From NCBI RefSeq assembly GCF_000754805.1, contig NZ_KN150731.1, forward strand, positions 310,001 through 374,000: a DNA stretch of 64,000 nucleotides, read 5' to 3'. The notes beneath the pieces were generated by a model that worked only from the letters and a program-made list of their open reading frames with translations, searched no databases and was not told the origin of the DNA. The DNA comes from Yersinia frederiksenii ATCC 33641. Lineage in GTDB: Bacteria; Pseudomonadota; Gammaproteobacteria; Enterobacterales; Enterobacteriaceae. This document shows positions 43,597-54,485 of this stretch, one piece after another. Numbering within the stretch: position 1 is the stretch's first letter; each line of letters begins with the position of its first letter. The position numbers were made by a program, and so were the translations under genes.

Positions 43597-43957
43597 AAAT
43601 ATCGGATTTGCTAATGGCGTAGGCAGAATACCTACATACTAAACAACGGTTTCCCATTGTTCCAGATGAATGAGGGATGATTTCATCAGGATAACAAGAT
43701 AGTTATCCAGGCATGAGCGATAAATCACACTCGGCTCAAGGAGAGATTCGAAATATCAGACTGAGGATGTTGCCAAGGTTAATTTCCCCAAGTGTTCCCC
43801 AGCCCGACATCCCGACTCTCAGTCGATAATTTTAGACCTTAAATATACGCCATTCTCTGTATGTTCTCAGCTTGCTCCCCGCACTACGCTTTCTGACATG
43901 TTCTACTGTGTTACCCGCGTAAGATTGCCTTTGTATCGACCATAAGGATAAATAGTG
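43597..43957. other. Intergenic region before the effector-like gene
   Basis: These 361 bases separate the divergent J-domain gene and the pentapeptide gene. I see no convincing gene or repeat. A - strand frame ending at 43832 runs antisense into the pentapeptide gene and lacks any family feature. Confidence 0.4.
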
Positions 43958-46069
43958 ATGGCATATAACATTAATAATTGTTCCGAACTGTCCCAGATAG
44001 CGAAATACTGTGCAACCGCCGCCAGCAATCAGGCTCTGGATAAAATGACCGGCCCTCAGGGTATTCGGGAGCATATTATTAATTTTTTTACTTTTGCTGC
44101 AATCCGTAAGGAGAATGCTAAGCCATATCATGAGTTCGCGAAAGCGATGACGGCGGCACTTCATCAGGCCTCCTTCGACACCCACTCCTGCACAATACCA
44201 GACAGGCTGGTCGTTAATTTTGCTGGGTATACCGTCATATTCACCCAACCGGAAATACATCATCACGCGGCTGACTTTGTGACTATTGAGATAAGTCAGG
44301 CTGCGGAAACAATCAGAGCAGAGGTTGACAGGGATAAGTTCTTGCTTATCAGCACCGCTCTGCAGTTGCGCCAGCTGGGGGGGCTACCTTCCAGCGCTGT
44401 TGTTTTAACCAAAGACAATTGCATGAAATTGCGGAAGGCTAACTTCTGCGACGCTGACCTGCGTCTGGTTGATCTGAGAAAAGCTGACCTGAGTGGGGCC
44501 AACCTACGCCAAGCCAACCTGAGCGGGGCCAACCTGAGCGGGGTCAGTCTGAATGGGGTCAATCTGGACTGGGTTAACTTGAGTGGGGCCAACCTGAGCG
44601 GGGCCAATCTACGCCAAGCCAACCTGAGCGGGCTCAACCTGAGCGGGGCCAACTTGAGCTGGGCCAACCTATGCTGGACTAACCTGAGCGAGGCCAATCT
44701 GAGTGAGGCCAACCTGAGCGGGGCAGACTTGGAAGGGGCCAATCTGTACAAAGCCAACCTGAGTGAGGTCAATTTGAGAGTGGTTAACCTAGGAGAGAAC
44801 AACCTAGAGGTTGCCCGCCGGAGCAGGGTCAACCTGAGCGAAGCCAACCTGAGCGGGGCTAACTTGAGCGGGTTGGCCTTACTCGGGCTCAACCTGAGCG
44901 GGACTAACCTGAATGGGGCTAACTTAAGCAGAGCCAAACTGAACTGGACCGACCTGAGCGGGGCAAACTTAAGTGGGATCAATCTGAGTGGGGCCATCCT
45001 GAGTGGAGCCAATCTGAGTGGGGCCAACTTAAGTGGGAGCAAACTTGGCGGGGCCATCCTGAGTGGGATCAATCTGAGCGGGGCCAATCTAAGTGGGGTC
45101 AACCTAGGCGGGGCCAACCTGAATAAGGTCAAGTTGTGCGGGGCTAACTTAAGCCGAGCCGACTTGAGCTCAGCCAATCTGAGTGAGGCTAATCTGAGCG
45201 GGGCGAACCTGAGTGCGGCTAACTTGAACAGGACCATCCTGAACAAAGCCGACCTAAGCTCGGCCAACCTGAGCAAGGTCAACCTGATCGGGAGTTGGCT
45301 GAACGAGGCCAACTTGGACAATATCCTACAGAAAGGTGGTTTTATTATGATGCCCCAGGGACGACCGAAATGGGATAATCGCACGCTGGACTTGTACCTT
45401 AACCACATAAACAACACAGAAAGCGGTAGCCTGCTGACAATGATGGACAGCCTCGATGAGCAGTACGCCGCCGTTAAATTACACATGGCGCGTGAGCTAA
45501 TGGCGACCCTACTTGAGGAACAAGTCAAGCTGTCCAACGTAGCCTTGCCCCTGATGGATATCCTGTCTAAACCGCCATACATCGATGATACTGATATCGC
45601 CGCCTGGATGAGTACAGTCTGCGAATCATACCTCAACGACAATGGCACGCGGGTCATGCCCCAGAATACAGGGCTGTTTAATTTGTCTGTCGATTTGTTC
45701 GCACGTCGGCCAGAACGGATGCTTTCCCTGAACGGTCCGTTTATTCAAATTGTGGCTCAGGGCATGGCTGAAAACAGCCTGCCGGAGATGAAGCAAAAGG
45801 CCGCTGATCTTTACGCGACTTATTTACGGGATGAACGAATAAAGGCCTATTCTGATTGGGAGGATTTTGGCAATGGGGAGGGGCAGCCGGACTGGGATGA
45901 CAAACATGCCGTCAATTACATTCTTATGTCCGCACAACCTGCAACGGTCAGTGCCATGCTACTGTCACCGCACGATCTGGAGAGCATGCTGAGGCCTCAG
46001 CCTGAAACTCAGTGGGATAGATTTTATCTCTACAGCAGCCCCGACAATAGTTTAGCCATGAACGAATAG
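43958..46069 (+). CDS. Pentapeptide-repeat protein resembling a type III effector (PipB2/SopA-like)
   Basis: This 703-residue protein has three parts. Residues 1-155 contain IREHIINFFTFAAIRKEN (36-53) and resemble from memory the N-terminal region of Salmonella PipB2. Residues 158-455 are about 60 pentapeptide repeats of A(N/D)LSG type, which form a right-handed beta-helix. Residues 465-703 (LDLYLNHINNTESGSLLTMMDSLDEQYAAVKLH and PLMDILSKPPYIDDTDIAAWM segments) resemble the central region of the SopA/NleL HECT-like E3 ligases. The catalytic Cys lobe of those enzymes would need about 170 more residues and is absent. ATG 43958 follows AAGGA; a GTG three bases earlier is also possible. Confidence 0.65.
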   Translation: MAYNINNCSELSQIAKYCATAASNQALDKMTGPQGIREHIINFFTFAAIRKENAKPYHEFAKAMTAALHQASFDTHSCTIPDRLVVNFAGYTVIFTQPEIHHHAADFVTIEISQAAETIRAEVDRDKFLLISTALQLRQLGGLPSSAVVLTKDNCMKLRKANFCDADLRLVDLRKADLSGANLRQANLSGANLSGVSLNGVNLDWVNLSGANLSGANLRQANLSGLNLSGANLSWANLCWTNLSEANLSEANLSGADLEGANLYKANLSEVNLRVVNLGENNLEVARRSRVNLSEANLSGANLSGLALLGLNLSGTNLNGANLSRAKLNWTDLSGANLSGINLSGAILSGANLSGANLSGSKLGGAILSGINLSGANLSGVNLGGANLNKVKLCGANLSRADLSSANLSEANLSGANLSAANLNRTILNKADLSSANLSKVNLIGSWLNEANLDNILQKGGFIMMPQGRPKWDNRTLDLYLNHINNTESGSLLTMMDSLDEQYAAVKLHMARELMATLLEEQVKLSNVALPLMDILSKPPYIDDTDIAAWMSTVCESYLNDNGTRVMPQNTGLFNLSVDLFARRPERMLSLNGPFIQIVAQGMAENSLPEMKQKAADLYATYLRDERIKAYSDWEDFGNGEGQPDWDDKHAVNYILMSAQPATVSAMLLSPHDLESMLRPQPETQWDRFYLYSSPDNSLAMNE
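45875..45882 (+). other. KOPS (FtsK-orienting octamer)
   Basis: GGGGAGGG on the + strand, inside the pentapeptide gene, points toward dif 2.7 kb away. Confidence 0.6.
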
Positions 46070-46291: not shown

Positions 46292-46636
46292 ATGGTTAAA
46301 GATAAATTTATTACTCACAGTTTTCCAGATGTCCTATGTTGGATTGAAAAAAATATTCACCGGGGAATTAAATCCACGGATGTAGTTGCCATTACTGGAT
46401 ACTCGCGATCGTATTTTTTACGTGAATTTCAACTCTTCATTGGCGTGAGTCTCTCTCAATACATTCGAGAGAAAAGGCTAATAATTTCAGCCAGTAAGTT
46501 AACGTGGACTAATTTAAAAATCCGTGAAATCAGTGACGAAATGGGCTTCCCGAGTCAGAGTACATTTTGTCAGACTTTTAAAACTTACTTCAATATATCT
46601 CCAACTGAATATCGTTATAACTCAAAAAATCTATAA
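46292..46636 (+). CDS. Minimal AraC-family regulator 1
   Basis: This 114-residue protein consists of little more than the two helix-turn-helix motifs of AraC/XylS regulators, like MarA and SoxS. The first HTH is in KSTDVVAITGYSRSYFLREFQLFIG and the second in KIREISDEMGFPSQSTFCQTFKTYFNISPTEYR. There is no ligand-binding domain, so activity would follow expression level. GAGGTGACATT precedes ATG. The AT-rich codon use differs from the housekeeping genes around it and suggests acquisition. Confidence 0.85.
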   Translation: MVKDKFITHSFPDVLCWIEKNIHRGIKSTDVVAITGYSRSYFLREFQLFIGVSLSQYIREKRLIISASKLTWTNLKIREISDEMGFPSQSTFCQTFKTYFNISPTEYRYNSKNL

Positions 46637-46711
46637 AAGTAAAATGCAGAGGGTGGGAACCACAGAATATATCTGAATACTATTCTTATGCCTTGGAATC
46701 TGGTTAATAAA

Positions 46712-47086
46712 ATGAAAAGACAATTTAAAGAGAAAACAGTGTTATCGGCCTTTCCTGAAATAAGGGAATGGATATCAAATAAGATAGAAAATGGGAATAG
46801 GGTGGTAACATCAGACGTCGTCTCTATATCTGGTTATTCACGTTCTTATTTTTTAAGAGAGTTTGATTATCATCACCAAATATCGGTTTCAAAATATATT
46901 AAACGCGAACGACTTTATCATGCACTCAATAAGGTTCTGGAATTAAAAAACAGCAATACGACATTAAAAGAAATTAGTATAACGCTGGGCTTCCCAAGCC
47001 AAAGTTCATTCTCAAGAGCATTCAAATCTTACTTTGGCGTCTCACCATCAAAATATGTACTTATCAATGCACTTATGGATTATTGA
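46712..47086 (+). CDS. Minimal AraC-family regulator 2
   Basis: This tandem paralogue of the preceding gene has 124 residues and shares VVSISGYSRSYFLREF and LGFPSQSSFSRAFKSYFGVSPSKY with it. It is again made only of the DNA-binding domain. The ATG at 46712 aligns with the start of its neighbour; an ATG at 46688 is possible. Neither has a strong ribosome site. The pair likely arose by duplication and may regulate the effector-like gene just upstream. The cfa gene follows after 26 bases on the same strand. Confidence 0.82.
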   Translation: MKRQFKEKTVLSAFPEIREWISNKIENGNRVVTSDVVSISGYSRSYFLREFDYHHQISVSKYIKRERLYHALNKVLELKNSNTTLKEISITLGFPSQSSFSRAFKSYFGVSPSKYVLINALMDY

Positions 47087-47112
47087 ATTAATGGTTAAGG
47101 AGAAAATAAACA

Positions 47113-48261
47113 ATGAGCTCAATTTGCGTTGATTCAGAATTAAAACAAGATCATTGGTATCGAATTTCAGCAGAAATGTTAGGCCAGGCAGGAATTGCAA
47201 TAAACGGAACAAAACCACAAGATATTAGAGTTAATAATACGAAGTTTTTTCAACGAGTTCTACAAGAGGGCTCTCTGGGGTTAGGTGAAAGTTATATGGA
47301 TGGTTGGTGGGAGTGTGACCGGCTAGATATTTTTTTCCAGTGTATTTTAACCTCTGAACTTGATACTCAACGCCCTAAACGCTTTAGTGATGTTGCCCGA
47401 ATTGCCTCCGCTCGTATCTTTAATTATCAAACACGTAAACGTGCCTGGATCGTAGGTAAAGAGCACTATGATTTAGGCAATGACTTATTTAGCCGTATGC
47501 TCGATTCTTATATGCAATATTCTTGTGCATATTGGAAAGAGGCCGAAACATTAGAACAGGCACAGCAGGCCAAATTGCGGATGATCTGCGAAAAATTACA
47601 GCTAAAATCTGGCATGAAGTTGCTGGATATTGGCTGTGGTTGGGGAGGGTTATCAGCATTTGCGGCTAAAGAGTATGGTGTGTCGGTAAAGGGAGTCACG
47701 ATTTCAGTTGAACAACAAGTCATGGCACAGGAGCGCTGTAAAGGTTTAGACGTACAAATTCAGTTGCAAGATTACCGTGACCTCAATGAGCGATTTGATC
47801 GTATTGTCTCGGTTGGTATGTTCGAGCATGTCGGCCCAAAGAACTATCGTACGTATTTTGAGGTGGTCTCACGCAACCTTAAACCAGACGGCTTATTCTT
47901 GTTACATACGATTGGTTCTAACCAAACTGATCTTAATGTCGACCCGTGGATTAATAAATATATTTTCCCTAATGGATGCCTGCCGTCGGTGACACAAATT
48001 GCCTCCACCAGTGAAGATTTGTTTGTACTGGAAGATTGGCACAATTTTGGTTGTGACTATGACCGTACTCTGATGGCTTGGTTCGATGCCTTTCAGCAGA
48101 ACTGGCCGCAGATTAAAGAGAATTACAACGACCGTTTTTATCGTATGTTTACTTATTATCTTAATGCTTGTGCCGGCGCTTTTCGCGCCAGAAATATCCA
48201 GCTTTGGCAGGTATTGTTGAGCCCTAAAGGTGTTGATGGTGGTATTCGAGTATATCGTTAA
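47113..48261 (+). CDS. cfa: Cyclopropane-fatty-acyl-phospholipid synthase
   Basis: Cfa methylenates the double bond of unsaturated acyl chains in membrane phospholipids using S-adenosylmethionine. Its 382 residues equal E. coli Cfa. Shared blocks are RVLQEGSLGLGESYMDGWWECDRLD, KEHYDLGNDLFSRMLD, the SAM motif LLDIGCGWGG (about 177-186), GMFEHVGPKNY and DPWINKYIFPNGCLPS. A strong AAGGAG site precedes ATG. The gene contains one KOPS octamer and is the last gene before dif on the left. Confidence 0.97.
   Translation: MSSICVDSELKQDHWYRISAEMLGQAGIAINGTKPQDIRVNNTKFFQRVLQEGSLGLGESYMDGWWECDRLDIFFQCILTSELDTQRPKRFSDVARIASARIFNYQTRKRAWIVGKEHYDLGNDLFSRMLDSYMQYSCAYWKEAETLEQAQQAKLRMICEKLQLKSGMKLLDIGCGWGGLSAFAAKEYGVSVKGVTISVEQQVMAQERCKGLDVQIQLQDYRDLNERFDRIVSVGMFEHVGPKNYRTYFEVVSRNLKPDGLFLLHTIGSNQTDLNVDPWINKYIFPNGCLPSVTQIASTSEDLFVLEDWHNFGCDYDRTLMAWFDAFQQNWPQIKENYNDRFYRMFTYYLNACAGAFRARNIQLWQVLLSPKGVDGGIRVYR
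47642..47649 (+). other. KOPS (FtsK-orienting octamer)
   Basis: GGGGAGGG on the + strand, inside cfa at the SAM motif, is the KOPS nearest to dif (905 bases away) and points at it. Confidence 0.6.
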
Positions 48262-48317
48262 TATGAGAGGAATCGAGAGTGGTATTCAGCTTGCATAAAT
48301 GATGCGTTTTAGATGCG

Positions 48318-48372
48318 GCTACGTGAATTCTGGCGTACTAAGTTACTGCCAAAAATACAGAATTCACGTAGC
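48318..48372. repeat. Perfect 15-bp inverted repeat (hairpin)
   Basis: GCTACGTGAATTCTG (48318-48332) and CAGAATTCACGTAGC (48358-48372) are exact reverse complements around a 25-base spacer, which has weak inner symmetry (GGC...GCC). There is no U-tract, so it is not a typical terminator. It lies 57 bases after cfa and 182 bases before dif. It may be a dispersed palindromic repeat or the end of a small mobile unit. Confidence 0.8.
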
Positions 48373-48553
48373 ACACGCAAAGTTGGATTCACGGATCGAA
48401 GAGGACGTTGAAATAAAACGCTGAAGTCTGACCGGTGATAATCCCATGGTGAGATGGAAACAGAGATAAATGGGGGAGGTCATGGATATCTTGCAGGCTG
48501 ATGGGCGGATACTGTGTAGTGACTAGAGCAAGACTATCTCAATATCAATATTC

Positions 48554-48581
48554 AATTTAACATAATATACATTATGCGCAC
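48554..48581 (-). other. dif: dif chromosome-dimer resolution site
   Basis: The 28 bases are the exact reverse complement of E. coli dif. On the + strand they read ATTTAACATAA (XerD arm, 48554-48564), TATACA (central hexamer, 48565-48570) and TTATGCGCACC (XerC arm, 48571-48581). XerC/XerD recombine two such sites under FtsK control to resolve dimeric chromosomes at division. KOPS polarity switches across it, matching a functional role. Confidence 0.97.
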
Positions 48582-48821
48582 CAAGGTAAGGATAAGCGGG
48601 ATCTGGCGTTTTGGGCTTTGCTCTGGGCATTCATTGATTTGAGTTTTGCTGCCTAACTAACCCTAAAAAATCCTTGCTGACCCTAACTCTATCCAGCTAA
48701 TAACCCTCTCATTGGCGTGTAACCAGGCCAAATACATAAGGCTGACTGGATAAAACCGATTATAGGAACAATACTTAGTACGGTTCCATATGGTTCTTAG
48801 TATCTTTACGAGAGGAATATT

Positions 48822-49100
48822 ATGAAATTCTTGAAAACAATAACAATGTTAGCTGTTCTCGGTGCATTCTCTTCCGGTGCAATATCCGCTGAGCTGTTAA
48901 CTAAAGAAGATCTCAACAAAAATCCTGGTCAGTATGAGAAAGTCGGTAATATTGTTACTTCCAATGAAATGGCACCAATGGATGCTCGAGAAGAACTGTC
49001 AAAAAAAGCAGATGAACTGGGTGGCGATTATTATGTCGTTACGTCAGCAAATACTGATAATAAGATTCATGCCACTGCTGATGTGTATAAGAAAAAGTAG
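48822..49100 (+). CDS. yahO: DUF1471 periplasmic protein YahO
   Basis: This 92-residue secreted protein has a signal peptide (MKFLKTITMLAVLGAFSSGAISA) and one DUF1471 domain. It matches E. coli YahO in detail: ELLTKEDL, QYEKVGNIVTSNEM, REELSKKADELGGDYYVVTS and NTDNKIHATADVYKKK. Members of this group respond to stress, but YahO's function is not known. GAGAGGAATATT precedes ATG. It is the first gene right of dif and is a distant single-domain relative of the YdgH protein at 1975. Confidence 0.88.
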   Translation: MKFLKTITMLAVLGAFSSGAISAELLTKEDLNKNPGQYEKVGNIVTSNEMAPMDAREELSKKADELGGDYYVVTSANTDNKIHATADVYKKK

Positions 49101-49136
49101 CCACTTTTTAGTGGATCTTATTGAATAACCTCGCTA

Positions 49137-49168
49137 CAGGCCCCCGCGGTATCCTCATCGGGGGCCTG
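49137..49168. terminator. Strong GC hairpin after yahO
   Basis: CAGGCCCCCG and CGGGGGCCTG form a perfect 10-bp stem 37 bases after the yahO stop. The downstream sequence has few Ts, so it is an imperfect terminator. Confidence 0.65.
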
Positions 49169-49197
49169 AAAGTATTTCGTGATTGTTCTGATTATTT

Positions 49198-49210
49198 GTG
49201 ACAGCGTCAC
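49198..49210. promoter_or_regulatory. matS site (MatP binding)
   Basis: GTGACAGCGTCAC fits GTGACRNYGTCAC at every position. It is intergenic and lies 617 bases right of dif. Confidence 0.9.
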
Positions 49211-49363
49211 TCAATTAACCCCCTTTTTTATCTTATCCGAATCCGGTATGCTCAAAATATGTTATAGGATTACCTGGATTTGAAACGTGATTTCAGTGTT
49301 CGCTCTATTCTATTTATCTCCATTTAAATCAATTGATTACCATGATATTCAGAGGCCTATATT

Positions 49364-50785
49364 ATGAGCCAGTCTGCACTGCGCAGTTCTGCTCTGCCCT
49401 TATTGGTCGCTGGTGCGTTCTTTATGGAAAACCTCGACGGGACAGTGATTGTCACCGCCATGCCGCAAATGGCGGCTGCCTTTGCGGTGCATCCCATCGA
49501 TATGAATATCGGTATTTCTGCTTATATTCTGACCTTGACGGTATTTATTCCCGCCAGTGGCTGGATTGCCAATCGATTCGGCGCACGTAATATCTTTGCC
49601 GCAGCAATGGTTATTTTTACATTAGCTTCAGTGCTTTGTGCTGTAAGTACCAATCTGATTGAGTTTACCGCCGCCCGTATATTGCAAGGCTTTGGTGGCG
49701 CGATGATGGTGCCCGTTGGTCGATTGATTGTGTTACGTAATACCGCCAAAGCTGACCTGATTAAAGCGATCGCGACGATTACCTGGCCGGGGTTAGTTGC
49801 CCCTATTCTTGGGCCACCTGTCGGCGGTTTTATTACGACCTATGCTTCCTGGCATTGGATTTTTATTTTAAATGTTCCATTAGGTATCATTGGGTTATGG
49901 CTGGCCTGGCGGCTTATTCCGCAAGAATCGCCACAGAAAGAGACCCCCTTCGACGGATTGGGCTTTTTATTAACGGGTACCGCTTGTTTCGGCCTAATGT
50001 TTGGTTTAGAACTCTTTAATCACCAAAGTTTCTCACGTTTAGTTCCCCTCTCTTGCATTGCTGGCAGCCTGATCTTAGGTGGGCTGGCCGTCTATCATGC
50101 CAAACGTCAGGCTTTCCCCTTGATTGATTTGTGGGCATTACGTATAAAAAGTTACAGCGTCACTGTTTGGGGCGGAGGTTTATTCCGCATGGCGATTGGT
50201 GCAGTGCCATTCTTGCTGCCATTACTGTTCCAGATTGGTTTTGGCTTGAGTGCCTTTAGTGCCGGTTTGCTGGTGTTGGCTGTGTTTGCCGGTAATCTGG
50301 TAATGAAGCCTTTCACTTCAGCGATCCTCTACCGTTTTCGCTTCCGTCCGACACTGCTGGTCAATGGCTTGCTGAATGCCGCCACTATTTTTGCTTGTGC
50401 ATTAATCACAACAGAAACGCCTAATTCACTGATTATATTGTTGCTTTTTATCAGTGGATTAACCCGGTCGATGCAGTTTACCGCACTTAATACCTTGGCT
50501 TTCTCTGAAGTCCCGGCAGCAAAAATGGCGGGCGCTAACACTCTGTCGAATATGGCTCAACAACTGGCAATTGGCTTAGGGATTGCCATTGGGGCATTAG
50601 CGCTGCGCATTGCCGAGTGGTTCCATCCCTATCGCGCGGGAATGATCCCACTGGAAAATTTCCAGATAGCATTTGTGGTTATTGGTGTGGTCGCATTACT
50701 ATCGGTAGTAGACACATTGGCGCTTAGCCGGGATGCCGGCGATGAAGTGCGTAAGAAGCCAGTCAGACGTGGAAAGGCAAAATAG
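49364..50785 (+). CDS. MFS multidrug-type transporter (DHA2, MdtD-like)
   Basis: This 473-residue inner-membrane protein has about 14 helices of the DHA2 drug:H+ antiporter family. Signature motifs are LDGTVIVTAMPQMAAAF (motif D1), GWIANRFGARNIF (motif A), RILQGFGGAMMVPVGR (motif B) and GLVAPILGPPVGGFI (motif C). It resembles E. coli MdtD (YegB) and YieO in length and motifs; which is closer cannot be told by eye. Substrates are unknown. GAGG precedes ATG. ydfG follows by about 85 bases on the same strand. Confidence 0.85.
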   Translation: MSQSALRSSALPLLVAGAFFMENLDGTVIVTAMPQMAAAFAVHPIDMNIGISAYILTLTVFIPASGWIANRFGARNIFAAAMVIFTLASVLCAVSTNLIEFTAARILQGFGGAMMVPVGRLIVLRNTAKADLIKAIATITWPGLVAPILGPPVGGFITTYASWHWIFILNVPLGIIGLWLAWRLIPQESPQKETPFDGLGFLLTGTACFGLMFGLELFNHQSFSRLVPLSCIAGSLILGGLAVYHAKRQAFPLIDLWALRIKSYSVTVWGGGLFRMAIGAVPFLLPLLFQIGFGLSAFSAGLLVLAVFAGNLVMKPFTSAILYRFRFRPTLLVNGLLNAATIFACALITTETPNSLIILLLFISGLTRSMQFTALNTLAFSEVPAAKMAGANTLSNMAQQLAIGLGIAIGALALRIAEWFHPYRAGMIPLENFQIAFVVIGVVALLSVVDTLALSRDAGDEVRKKPVRRGKAK

Positions 50786-51671: not shown

Positions 51672-54485
51672 CTACCAGCTTACCCGAACGCCTACTGTAC
51701 CGCCGATGGCATAATTATCATTAACATTGCGGGTTGCAGTGATTAGATTCACATTGCCATAGACTCCATAGCGCCCGTTCTGCCATTCATAAGTTCCCCC
51801 GGCACCGACCCCCACCGATTGCCGTTCATCTCGGGTAGTAAAATCAATGCCGGATACTCTAGTTTTAGTGCCATTCAGGAACTCATTATAAACATCAAGA
51901 TTACTGTAGAGGTGTGAGCGGCTGGTTGTGCCATTTTCTGCAATCCACACATTCTCTTTGTCCAGAGATACTCCCGCCCTTCCTCGCAAGCTATCTCCAT
52001 CCTGAAGTGAAACTTCGCTACCATATGGATCGCGGAACGTATCAAAATCTACCCGCGAATAGGTCAGTTGCAGTTGGGGTGTCAATGAGAAACCATTGCC
52101 TAGTTGATAATGTTTACCCGTTTCAACCGAGGAAGCATACCCCCTGCCCGAATTGCCATTAGCAACTGGGTGCCCTTCTGTTGTGGAGTTCAAGTCACTG
52201 TCAAACCACATGGTTTGTAATTGGCCGTCGATATACACGCCATCAGCACTGTACCAAGTGAGCGTTGTACCTACGCCATAACCATTGGTATCAATATTGC
52301 CGTAACCAAAGTAAGAGCTAATATCGGCTTTTGCTTTACCGTAGGAGAAATTCACCCCGCCGGTTAGCAATGAGCCGTCTTGGCCTTGATGCAATGGCAC
52401 ATCAATACCGGTTTGTAATTTCCACACAGCGATATCGCGATTTGAGCTGCTGGTAGAGTTGGCAGGATCGACTACTTGATGGCTGCCTTCGATACGCCCC
52501 CATGCCCATTGATTATCATTCGAATTGTTTGAGTCGAGTTCAGTTTGTGTCTGAGACCAGTAACGATTACCGACACGCTGTTGCAAGGTCGGCAATGTGT
52601 TCAGTGCGGCTAACACCTGCGGATACTGTTCATATAATGGCACGCCAGGCTGGTAGCGCGGGCTACCAGGTTTAACATCTGGCCCAAAGTCTGGCCCAGG
52701 ACCCGGCTCGGTTGATAGTAGTTCAGATGAAAGAGACCAATTGCGCCCAGCAACCGCCGCATTTCCGCTAGCCTGTAAGGTGTAAGCATAGGCCCCGGCA
52801 ATGACGGCCTGCTGACCGGCCCCTGTTATATAATCGCCAGCTAGCAAGAAAGTCCCATCAGGCGCCAAGCCGCCGACATCAATAATATTAATACCGTTAA
52901 TTGTGGTATCACCAAGGCCGCCTAAATTGCTCACCCGAACGGTAGTCGTACCGCTCGCATTACCTGATATCAGTAATTTATCGGTGGCAGAGCTGTCATT
53001 GCCAAGCACCGATTCAATTTGCAGTGCACCATTATTCCCCACATAGTTGCCATCGACCGTCAGGGCTCCGATGGAATTCCCGGGAGAAATAATACCTGCG
53101 TTAGTCGTGTTACCGACGATGCCATTACCTTCCAGCTGGCCGCCAGCGAGGATCATCGCCGTGGAGCTAGAGAGATTGCCGTTAATCTGTAGAATACCCT
53201 GATCATTGGCCTGCAATGTACCCGTAAAATCGCCTTGGTTGCTGTTGAATATGGTCCGGCCTGCAACGGCGTCAATCAGCCCGGAACCCACTAAACCTGT
53301 TGCGGAACCTGTCGCATTGTTAGCTCCACCATTCAGAGTGGCATCAAACACATAATTAGATGAGGTGTGATTGAGGATGATGCGCCCATCGCCAGCGCCA
53401 AACAGGATACTTGATGTAGTAAGGGTACCAACCTCCGCTGGTGCTGTACCAAGCAACCCACCGATCGTCAGTGTGCCGCTGCTACCCGCGTTATTGGCAA
53501 TCGTGACATTGGATGCAGAAACATAGCCCTGATTGGCTATTTCTATTGAAGCATTACCAGCAGTACCGACAGACAGCGCACCAGTGTTATTCCATTGTGA
53601 TCCGGTACCGCTAACTGCCACGGTGCCACTGCTGCCAGCCAGCTCGCCCACCGAACCAGAGGTACTCGATACAACACCGCTATCGGTGATATTTAACATA
53701 CCACTGCCAGCAGTGCCGACAGACAGCGCGCCTAGATTGTGCCATAACGACCCTAATCCGTTTACAGTCACCGTGCCAACACTACCCGCTCGCAGGCCAA
53801 TCATGCCTGATGCACTCTCTACAAGGCCACTGTTGGTGATCTCCAGTGTACCGTTACCACCAGAACCCACGCTAAGATAGTCTGAATTTAGCCATGTAGA
53901 ACCCACGCCACTGACCGTGACCTTGCCTATACCGGTGGTAAGGTTGGACGCTATATTGGCATTGGTATTTGATACCAGGCCCCCGTTGATGATGTCCATA
54001 GAAGCAGTGCCGCCTGCCCCCATCCCAAAGATGTCAGCAATAATCCATTGTGAGCCAGCACCACTCACTGTTGTTGCACCTATACTGCCGACTTGGTTGC
54101 CAATGATGCCCTGAAAACTTGATGCAGAGCCCCCGTCAAAGATATCCAGTGTGCCTGTACCCACATAACCGACATACAAGACATCAGAAGTATTCCACTG
54201 TGCTCCCGTACCACTAATAGTCACAACACCAATACTGTTTAGTGCCGCAATACTGCCTTTGACACTTGACACAATGCCACCACTGGTAATGTGTAATGTA
54301 CCGTCAGTAGAAACGCCCACAAATAAATCCTGGCCAACATTCCAAGGTGAGGCTTGCGTCCCCGGTACGGTAAAGGTCTGCCCGTTTTGAATATAAAACA
54401 CAGCAAATGCATTAAGTGGGCAAGTCAGCATAGCGAGAATCGAAATACAGGATAAAGCACAACAAAAACGTTTCGAGCTACCCAT
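51672..54485 (-). CDS. Repeat-rich autotransporter (type Va)
   Basis: This 937-residue protein has a signal peptide (residues 1-28), a long passenger with at least five repeats of about 48 residues, and a C-terminal beta-barrel (about 680-937). Each repeat has the pattern 'G.VTVSG.GS.W.N...L.VG..G.G.L.I...G.V.S....IG', as in VTVNGLGSLWHNLGALSVGT. A beta-helical stretch with GNYVGNNGALQIE (about 470-485) precedes the barrel. The barrel starts near NNQWAWGRIEGSH and ends with GTVGVRVSW. It is likely a surface adhesin; the target is unknown. AGGTGTATCGGT precedes ATG. Repeats may vary in number between strains. Confidence 0.88.
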   Translation of the reverse strand: MGSSKRFCCALSCISILAMLTCPLNAFAVFYIQNGQTFTVPGTQASPWNVGQDLFVGVSTDGTLHITSGGIVSSVKGSIAALNSIGVVTISGTGAQWNTSDVLYVGYVGTGTLDIFDGGSASSFQGIIGNQVGSIGATTVSGAGSQWIIADIFGMGAGGTASMDIINGGLVSNTNANIASNLTTGIGKVTVSGVGSTWLNSDYLSVGSGGNGTLEITNSGLVESASGMIGLRAGSVGTVTVNGLGSLWHNLGALSVGTAGSGMLNITDSGVVSSTSGSVGELAGSSGTVAVSGTGSQWNNTGALSVGTAGNASIEIANQGYVSASNVTIANNAGSSGTLTIGGLLGTAPAEVGTLTTSSILFGAGDGRIILNHTSSNYVFDATLNGGANNATGSATGLVGSGLIDAVAGRTIFNSNQGDFTGTLQANDQGILQINGNLSSSTAMILAGGQLEGNGIVGNTTNAGIISPGNSIGALTVDGNYVGNNGALQIESVLGNDSSATDKLLISGNASGTTTVRVSNLGGLGDTTINGINIIDVGGLAPDGTFLLAGDYITGAGQQAVIAGAYAYTLQASGNAAVAGRNWSLSSELLSTEPGPGPDFGPDVKPGSPRYQPGVPLYEQYPQVLAALNTLPTLQQRVGNRYWSQTQTELDSNNSNDNQWAWGRIEGSHQVVDPANSTSSSNRDIAVWKLQTGIDVPLHQGQDGSLLTGGVNFSYGKAKADISSYFGYGNIDTNGYGVGTTLTWYSADGVYIDGQLQTMWFDSDLNSTTEGHPVANGNSGRGYASSVETGKHYQLGNGFSLTPQLQLTYSRVDFDTFRDPYGSEVSLQDGDSLRGRAGVSLDKENVWIAENGTTSRSHLYSNLDVYNEFLNGTKTRVSGIDFTTRDERQSVGVGAGGTYEWQNGRYGVYGNVNLITATRNVNDNYAIGGTVGVRVSW
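52142..52149 (-). other. KOPS (FtsK-orienting octamer), reversed
   Basis: CCCTGCCC on the + strand is GGGCAGGG on the - strand and points leftward to dif. It is the only KOPS I found right of dif. Confidence 0.6.

What the first reader, a model, noticed from the sequence alone, without database searches (positions are those of the whole stretch)
48554..48581. Exact dif site between cfa and yahO
The 28 bases equal the reverse complement of E. coli dif, with both Xer arms and the central hexamer unchanged. This fixes the chromosome terminus inside the window and explains the otherwise empty 560-bp gap. Short sites like this are rarely annotated.
Basis: partly seen in the sequence, partly recalled or inferred. 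Interest (0 to 1): 0.8.

Follow-up and report, generated by a model that had tools for sequence, protein, structure and literature searches.

The report
Chromosome dif site with companion repeat
The spot where this bacterium separates its joined chromosome copies is an ordinary one, but beside it lies a 55-letter mirrored sequence that recurs next to such spots in other bacteria, in phage P1 and on some plasmids, and that I found no description of.

Summary
It is the only copy within 3 mismatches in its 4.94-Mb genome, lies opposite dnaA (50.6%/49.4%), and KOPS polarity and GC skew flip at it. A contig match puts the genus as Yersinia. As a dif it is ordinary.

The same 560-bp gap holds a less ordinary thing: a perfect 15-25-15 inverted repeat (48318-48372), 182 bp from dif. 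Repeats with the same arms and 40-bp spacing score above 20 bits within 1.5 kb of dif in 31 of 140 distinct dif loci, the window included; sampled background has none. The repeat also lies between lox and cre in phage P1, and 22-37 bp upstream of Cre-like or ResD-like recombinase genes on several plasmids. Arm pairs show no covariation beyond shuffles, so I read it as a two-part protein-binding DNA site linked to dimer resolution; the protein is unknown. Against: 109 of 140 dif loci lack it, E. coli K-12's included, as do the F-plasmid stretch examined and 8 of 11 plasmid recombinase loci picked by protein similarity. I found no description in the open-access papers searched; main P1 papers are not held.

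The parts
48555..48582 (-). dif site, exact E. coli 28-mer; on the minus strand XerC arm 48572-48582, central hexamer 48566-48571, XerD arm 48555-48565
   Evidence: 11-6-11 layout from passages of PMC10132070
48318..48372 (.). 55-bp inverted repeat: 15-bp perfect arms (48318-48332 and 48358-48372) around a 25-bp loop; 182 bp from the XerD edge of dif
   Evidence: the two arms are the only exact copies in the own genome
48583..48627 (-). conserved 45-bp flank abutting the XerC arm; scores 32.0 bits with a matrix made without the window
47642..47649 (+). last forward KOPS before dif, pointing at dif
   Evidence: C1:357642-357649
52142..52149 (-). first KOPS beyond dif, pointing back at dif; the only reverse KOPS in the window, against 9 forward, all before dif
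   Evidence: C1:362142-362149

Best explanation
The 28-mer is the working chromosomal dif: XerC and XerD exchange strands there to split chromosome dimers, and FtsK is steered to it by KOPS (biochemistry known from E. coli; position, polarity and gene content shown here). The inverted repeat beside it is a second, separate DNA element. Its two inverted 15-bp half-sites lie 40 bp apart, so an oligomeric DNA-binding protein probably holds both (inferred). It accompanies dimer-resolution loci whatever their recombinase (Xer at dif, Cre-like at lox, ResD-like on plasmids), so its likely job is to couple the resolution site or terminus to the state of the replicon, as an accessory or architectural site, rather than to do the recombination itself (inferred). 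The XerC-side flank would be a degenerate half-site of the same kind placed directly against XerC (inferred from sequence likeness).
For: dif. Repeat: matrix hits above 20 bits within 1.5 kb in 31 of 140 distinct dif loci, the window among them; 0 in 49 background stretches of 20 kb of the own genome on both strands, best -1.8 bits. Arm pairs (at most 6 mismatches in all) within 1.5 kb of dif in those 140 loci, spacings 20 to 70: 29 at 40 bp, 8 at all other spacings together. Pattern in 20 of 198 family and 23 of 295 order genomes, reversed control in none. Within 5 kb of dif on the same contig in 14 of the 20; 3 more of the 20 have it beside a tyrosine recombinase (G195, G165, G019). Within 1.5 kb of a dif-like site in 5 of 5 loci of family f7, 2 of 2 of f17, 1 of 1 of f20. 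Phage P1: repeat at 118-172, between lox and cre. Beside Cre-like genes (37-42% identical to P1 Cre where compared) in G146, G195 and on Pantoea, E. kobei and Acinetobacter plasmids, and in G449; beside ResD-like genes (51-54% identical to the F gene) in G165, G019 and a Lelliottia plasmid. Against a congener the arms match at 29 of 30 positions and the loop at 22 of 25, the 60-bp flanks at 39 of 120 without gaps. No covariation of arm pairs beyond shuffles on 17 sequences, which favours protein binding over RNA structure.
Against: 109 of 140 dif loci have no repeat above 20 bits, the E. coli K-12 locus included, so it is not needed for Xer recombination at dif. The stretch of plasmid F around its recombinase gene lacks it, as do 8 of 11 plasmid recombinase loci fetched by protein similarity. 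In family f2 it lies 5.5-34 kb from dif in five genomes and on another contig in the sixth. In G142, G020 and G173 I found neither dif nor a tyrosine recombinase in the stretch examined. On 64 sequences one arm pair (A-T to T-A) changes on both sides somewhat more often than independent columns would give, 15 against 9.8. No binding protein is identified. Related genomes are not independent cases, and the background was taken from one genome only.
Confidence: 0.68

Rival explanations
1. The repeat is the end, target or scar of a mobile element that hunts sites bound by tyrosine recombinases, as IS1202-family elements do 5 bp from the XerC arm.
For: dif flanks are a landing zone: an inovirus-type prophage in E. 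coli REF2; IS-like ends 5-6 bp from XerC in several loci (passages of PMC10132070). In G146 two repeats sit 1.75 kb apart around a Cre-like gene, and in pEA320 one lies on each side of it.
Against: Fixed 40-bp spacing with mostly unrelated loops is not what decayed element ends give. In P1 and at the window's dif no element is attached. Arms outlast flanks between congeners.
Confidence: 0.15
2. The repeat is a transcriptional operator of plasmid recombinase genes, carried to the chromosome with old insertions at dif.
For: It lies 22-37 bp upstream of the recombinase gene in seven loci; in P1 one arm overlaps promoter P3cre.
Against: At the window's dif there is no recombinase gene beside it; in pEA320 a second copy lies about 630 bp downstream of the gene.
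Confidence: 0.12
3. It is an RNA hairpin, for instance a checkpoint RNA of the Rcd type (recalled).
For: Perfect 15-bp stem in the window; linked to dimer-resolution loci.
Against: No covariation beyond shuffles (with one weak exception). No Rfam match near its gathering score in 47000-50000; the best, E 1.1, is a mir-137 model lying on the repeat with 19.8 of 56.7 bits. One-sided decay of an arm is common.
Confidence: 0.05

Closest known systems
E. coli dif / XerCD-FtsK chromosome dimer resolution
   Same: All 28 bases; minus strand of the K-12 record too, with 3 forward KOPS before and 2 reverse KOPS after dif in the 20 kb seen; single copy; terminus position
   Different: Nothing in the core site; the neighbourhood (cfa-like and yahO-like genes, 55-bp repeat) differs from K-12
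Phage P1 lox-cre region
   Same: A repeat with both arms (2 mismatches in 30) and the same 40-bp spacing lies about 100 bp from lox
   Different: Recombinase is Cre, with its gene beside the site; the P1 record annotates promoters, Dam and LexA sites there but no such repeat
cer and psi accessory sequences (ArgR or ArcA with PepA)
   Same: Accessory DNA beside a Xer site
   Different: Those are about 200 bp long, next to the XerC arm, on multicopy plasmids (passages of PMC11724359); 20 of the 31 best repeats at dif lie on the XerD side, and the motif differs as recalled
IS1202-family insertions at dif
   Same: Target the dif neighbourhood, 5 bp from the XerC arm (passages of PMC10132070)
   Different: Transposable elements; I saw none at the window's dif

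Membership tests
chromosomal dif (XerCD site) | 28-bp 11-6-11 site with conserved XerD arm | tested here: met
   no mismatch
chromosomal dif (XerCD site) | single copy in the chromosome | tested here: met
   1 match with up to 3 mismatches
chromosomal dif (XerCD site) | opposite the origin, at the skew and KOPS switch | tested here: met
   a skew-reversed stretch of about 1.45 Mb away from dif is a complication
chromosomal dif (XerCD site) | XerC and XerD encoded in the genome | tested here: met
   XerD over cut-off at C1:2002486; a second full-length match of 289 bits, below the XerD cut-off, at C1:3108808, taken as XerC without a XerC model
chromosomal dif (XerCD site) | FtsK-dependent recombination | not testable with these tools
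   needs cells
cer/psi-type accessory sequence | ArgR or ArcA site and PepA region next to the XerC arm | not tested
   no ArgR or ArcA matrix was run
Rfam RNA family | covariance-model match at gathering score | tested here: not met
   for window 47000-50000

The most novel reading that the evidence does not exclude
A single unrecognised host DNA-binding protein reads the same 55-bp two-part site beside chromosomal dif, P1 lox and plasmid resolution loci, and ties dimer resolution by unrelated recombinases to replication or division; in Enterobacteriaceae the asymmetric site points at dif, so it may act with polarity, as KOPS and Ter do.
Probability: 0.35. Interest if true: 0.85.

Novelty: new variant of a known kind. 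Interest (0 to 1): 0.58.

Why it matters
dif is usually treated as self-sufficient: 28 bp plus FtsK. A conserved partner element shared by dif, P1 lox and other plasmid resolution loci would mean that a layer of control over dimer resolution has been missed, and in a system (P1 lox-cre) used in laboratories everywhere. It also gives a second landmark for finding termini and resolution loci, and makes the question of what else acts at dif testable by pulling down the protein.

Tried and rejected
Inovirus scar as the source of the window's XerC flank: E. coli REF2 has such a flank at a prophage edge and viral contigs carry related flanks, but the flank also stands in K-12, in the 76 bp between hipA and dif, where no prophage gene is annotated. 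Which side borrowed it is open.

A degenerate second dif just beyond the repeat: likeness is limited to about half a site; not claimed. IS21 as owner of the IS-like flank, my first guess, was dropped for the IS1202 family after passages of PMC10132070; I ran no IS1202 model. RNA hairpin. Polarity beyond the 31 loci: read by eye it holds in roughly half of about 11 repeats of other genomes, so I do not claim it there.

Paper searches, listings only: 46 papers, 15 seen; 6 arm strings, 1 paper, on T7, not opened; 2; 8; 4 shorter strings, 116 papers, 15 titles seen, none on dif or P1; 7. Passages were read in PMC2731167, PMC7307601, PMC11724359, PMC10132070 and PMC5357621; none I saw describes the repeat. 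The P1 genome paper is not held, so a description there is not excluded.

Full report
The site. No other match with up to 3 mismatches exists in the window or in the genome, a 4,900,185-bp chromosome plus a 41,687-bp second contig. dif lies about 2,480,561 bp from dnaA one way and 2,419,624 bp the other. KOPS, from position-sorted lists: 28 forward and 2 reverse before dif, 0 forward and 19 reverse from dif to 660 kb; in the window itself 9 forward, all before dif, and 1 reverse after it. In 49 sampled stretches of 20 kb the GC skew turns from plus to minus between the 300-kb and 400-kb samples. XerD is found over its cut-off and a second full-length Xer-like gene is present. K-12 carries dif on the same written strand with the same KOPS order in the 20 kb seen. 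Each defining feature that I tested is met; this is an ordinary dif.

Where it comes from. A genome given as same genus (G176) has a contig of 228,587 bp with dif at 168,239, equal in length and position to Yersinia nurmii NZ_CPYD01000006.1, so I take the genus to be Yersinia. 117 of 198 family genomes have a dif within 2 mismatches; of the 81 without, I count 10 of 3 Mb or more.

The rest of the gap. At 48318-48372 lies a perfect inverted repeat, arms of 15 bp, loop of 25 bp. Its two arms are the only exact copies in the genome; 8 further places match with 2 mismatches, about what chance gives (the chance estimate is mine). Dif loci of related bacteria show the same arms near dif, nearly always 40 bp apart (exceptions at 41 and 37). 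Taking every spacing from 20 to 70 bp in 140 distinct dif loci, 29 arm pairs have spacing 40 and 8 have some other.

How strong is the link to dif. The core pattern with up to 1 mismatch occurs in 20 of 198 family genomes, its reversed control in none. With the dif places and one more seen, 14 of the 20 have a repeat within 5 kb of dif on the same contig. Of the other six, G195, G165 and G019 have it beside a tyrosine recombinase, and G142, G020 and G173 have neither in the stretch examined. A 67-bp matrix from 64 non-redundant repeats finds hits above 20 bits within 1.5 kb in 31 of 140 dif loci. For each test the repeats with the same loop were removed from training, but relatives were not. 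The best score in 0.98 Mb of the own genome, both strands, is -1.8 bits; the window scores 57.5. In 295 genomes of the order 23 carry it and the control none. A dif-like site (2 to 4 mismatches in f7, 1 to 3 in the others) lies within 1.5 kb in 5 of 5 loci of family f7, 2 of 2 of f17 and 1 of 1 of f20, and in G421 of the own family. In f2 five cases lie 5.5, 8.6, 22.5, 29.8 and 34 kb from the best dif-like site and the sixth, G223, is on another contig; in f21 the one case lies 9 kb away: near the terminus, not at dif. In six bacterial genomes or phage records reached through named or virus loci, plus P1, there are 1 or 2 copies each; a second copy in the Pantoea genome lies about 45 kb from the first. 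K-12 as a whole genome was not searched.

Away from dif. The repeat is often beside a tyrosine recombinase. G146 (two contigs), G195, G449, two Pantoea plasmids, pEA320, an E. kobei phage-like plasmid and an Acinetobacter plasmid have it beside a Cre-like gene; those compared with P1 Cre are 37-44% identical. G165, G019 and a Lelliottia plasmid have it beside a gene 51-54% identical to the F gene that I recall as resD. Pfam calls the ones tested phage integrases. Phage P1 has the repeat at 118-172, with half of lox at 1-17 and cre from 436. In IMG/VR a strict pattern gave 87 stretches, 80 of them listed and scanned; 73 of the 80 have a recombinase match within 1.5 kb, those shown being 99-100% P1 Cre. 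These are P1 relatives and count as one case. Negative cases: the plasmid F stretch; 5 of 7 plasmid loci that I fetched out of 40 listed by Cre likeness and 3 of 4 out of 40 listed by ResD likeness; of six plasmid loci fetched by DNA likeness, three show the repeat beside a recombinase, one a repeat with 4 mismatches without a listed recombinase, one only a poor repeat, one none; and the E. coli K-12 dif locus.

What kind of element. Between the window and a congener (G040) the arms match at 29 of 30 positions and the loop at 22 of 25, the ungapped 60-bp flanks at 20 and 19 of 60, though about ten bases next to one arm also match when gaps are allowed. Arm pairs show no covariation beyond shuffles on 17 sequences; on 64 sequences one pair of 15 changes on both sides somewhat more than expected. 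The loop has some content: 7.5 bits in all against 1.9-2.3 in six shuffled sets, which had fewer restarts. In the 31 dif loci the better arm, followed by GCGATC in 18 (not in the window), faces dif in 30, whichever side it lies on; L143 is the exception. Orientation was assigned from sequence alone, but several of the 31 are close relatives, and in repeats with two equal arms, as in the window, orientation rests on loop and flanks. My reading is a two-part binding site for an unknown protein, tied to dimer-resolution loci. Shown: presence, spacing, linkage, conservation. Inferred: binding, oligomer, role in control.

The XerC-side flank. 45 bp next to the XerC arm are conserved in 88 of 144 dif loci by a matrix trained on the set itself; the window, held out, scores 32.0 against at most 18.3 in 0.98 Mb of the own genome. 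A survey of 161 proteobacterial sites calls the flanks highly variable (PMC2731167, passages); that is a wider sample. The core of the flank (CAGATTC at -23) resembles one arm of the repeat, and the repeat matrix finds it in register in some loci with low scores (hits at -63), so the two may be related. Prophage and IS-like ends also lie at dif, so the flank's history is mixed.

Verdict. dif: correct and ordinary. The inverted repeat: a well-supported association without a known protein. I found no description of it in the open-access library (searches, listings only; passages of five papers); the main P1 papers are not in it.

Noticed in passing
own chromosome C1, about 0.8-2.25 Mb: Sampled GC skew and KOPS polarity are reversed over about 1.45 Mb inside one replichore, and the 16S gene at 2,135,442 points against replication. 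Either a large inversion within one replichore or an assembly error.
   Followed up: partly
L075, L071, L053, L032 and others, XerC side of dif: IS-like ends stop 5-6 bp from the XerC arm in several Enterobacteriaceae, as described for IS1202-family elements in Acinetobacter.
   Followed up: partly
L338 1659, L339 2153, L340 703, L341 1777: A second palindrome of the form 13-8-13 (TTCACGCATGATAAC...) lies near dif in four genomes of family f7; it looks like a lox-type site.
   Followed up: no
L010 and L104 (Mangrovibacter), the 16 bp before dif: In neighbourhoods 97% identical over 2.5 kb the last 16 bp before the XerC arm differ at about half of the positions, as if replaced.
   Followed up: partly
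window 43955-46069: A pentapeptide-repeat protein with PipB2_N and SopA-like domains, by Pfam a possible secreted effector.
   Followed up: no
window 51672-54485, minus strand: Autotransporter with AC_1 and beta-domain.
   Followed up: no
window 46292-46636 and 46688-47086: Two small AraC-type regulators in a row upstream of the cfa-like gene.
   Followed up: no
MT185428 3-53: Escherichia phage EC6098, whose record annotates a dif-motif, matches across dif and part of the XerC flank: another dif-using element.
   Followed up: no
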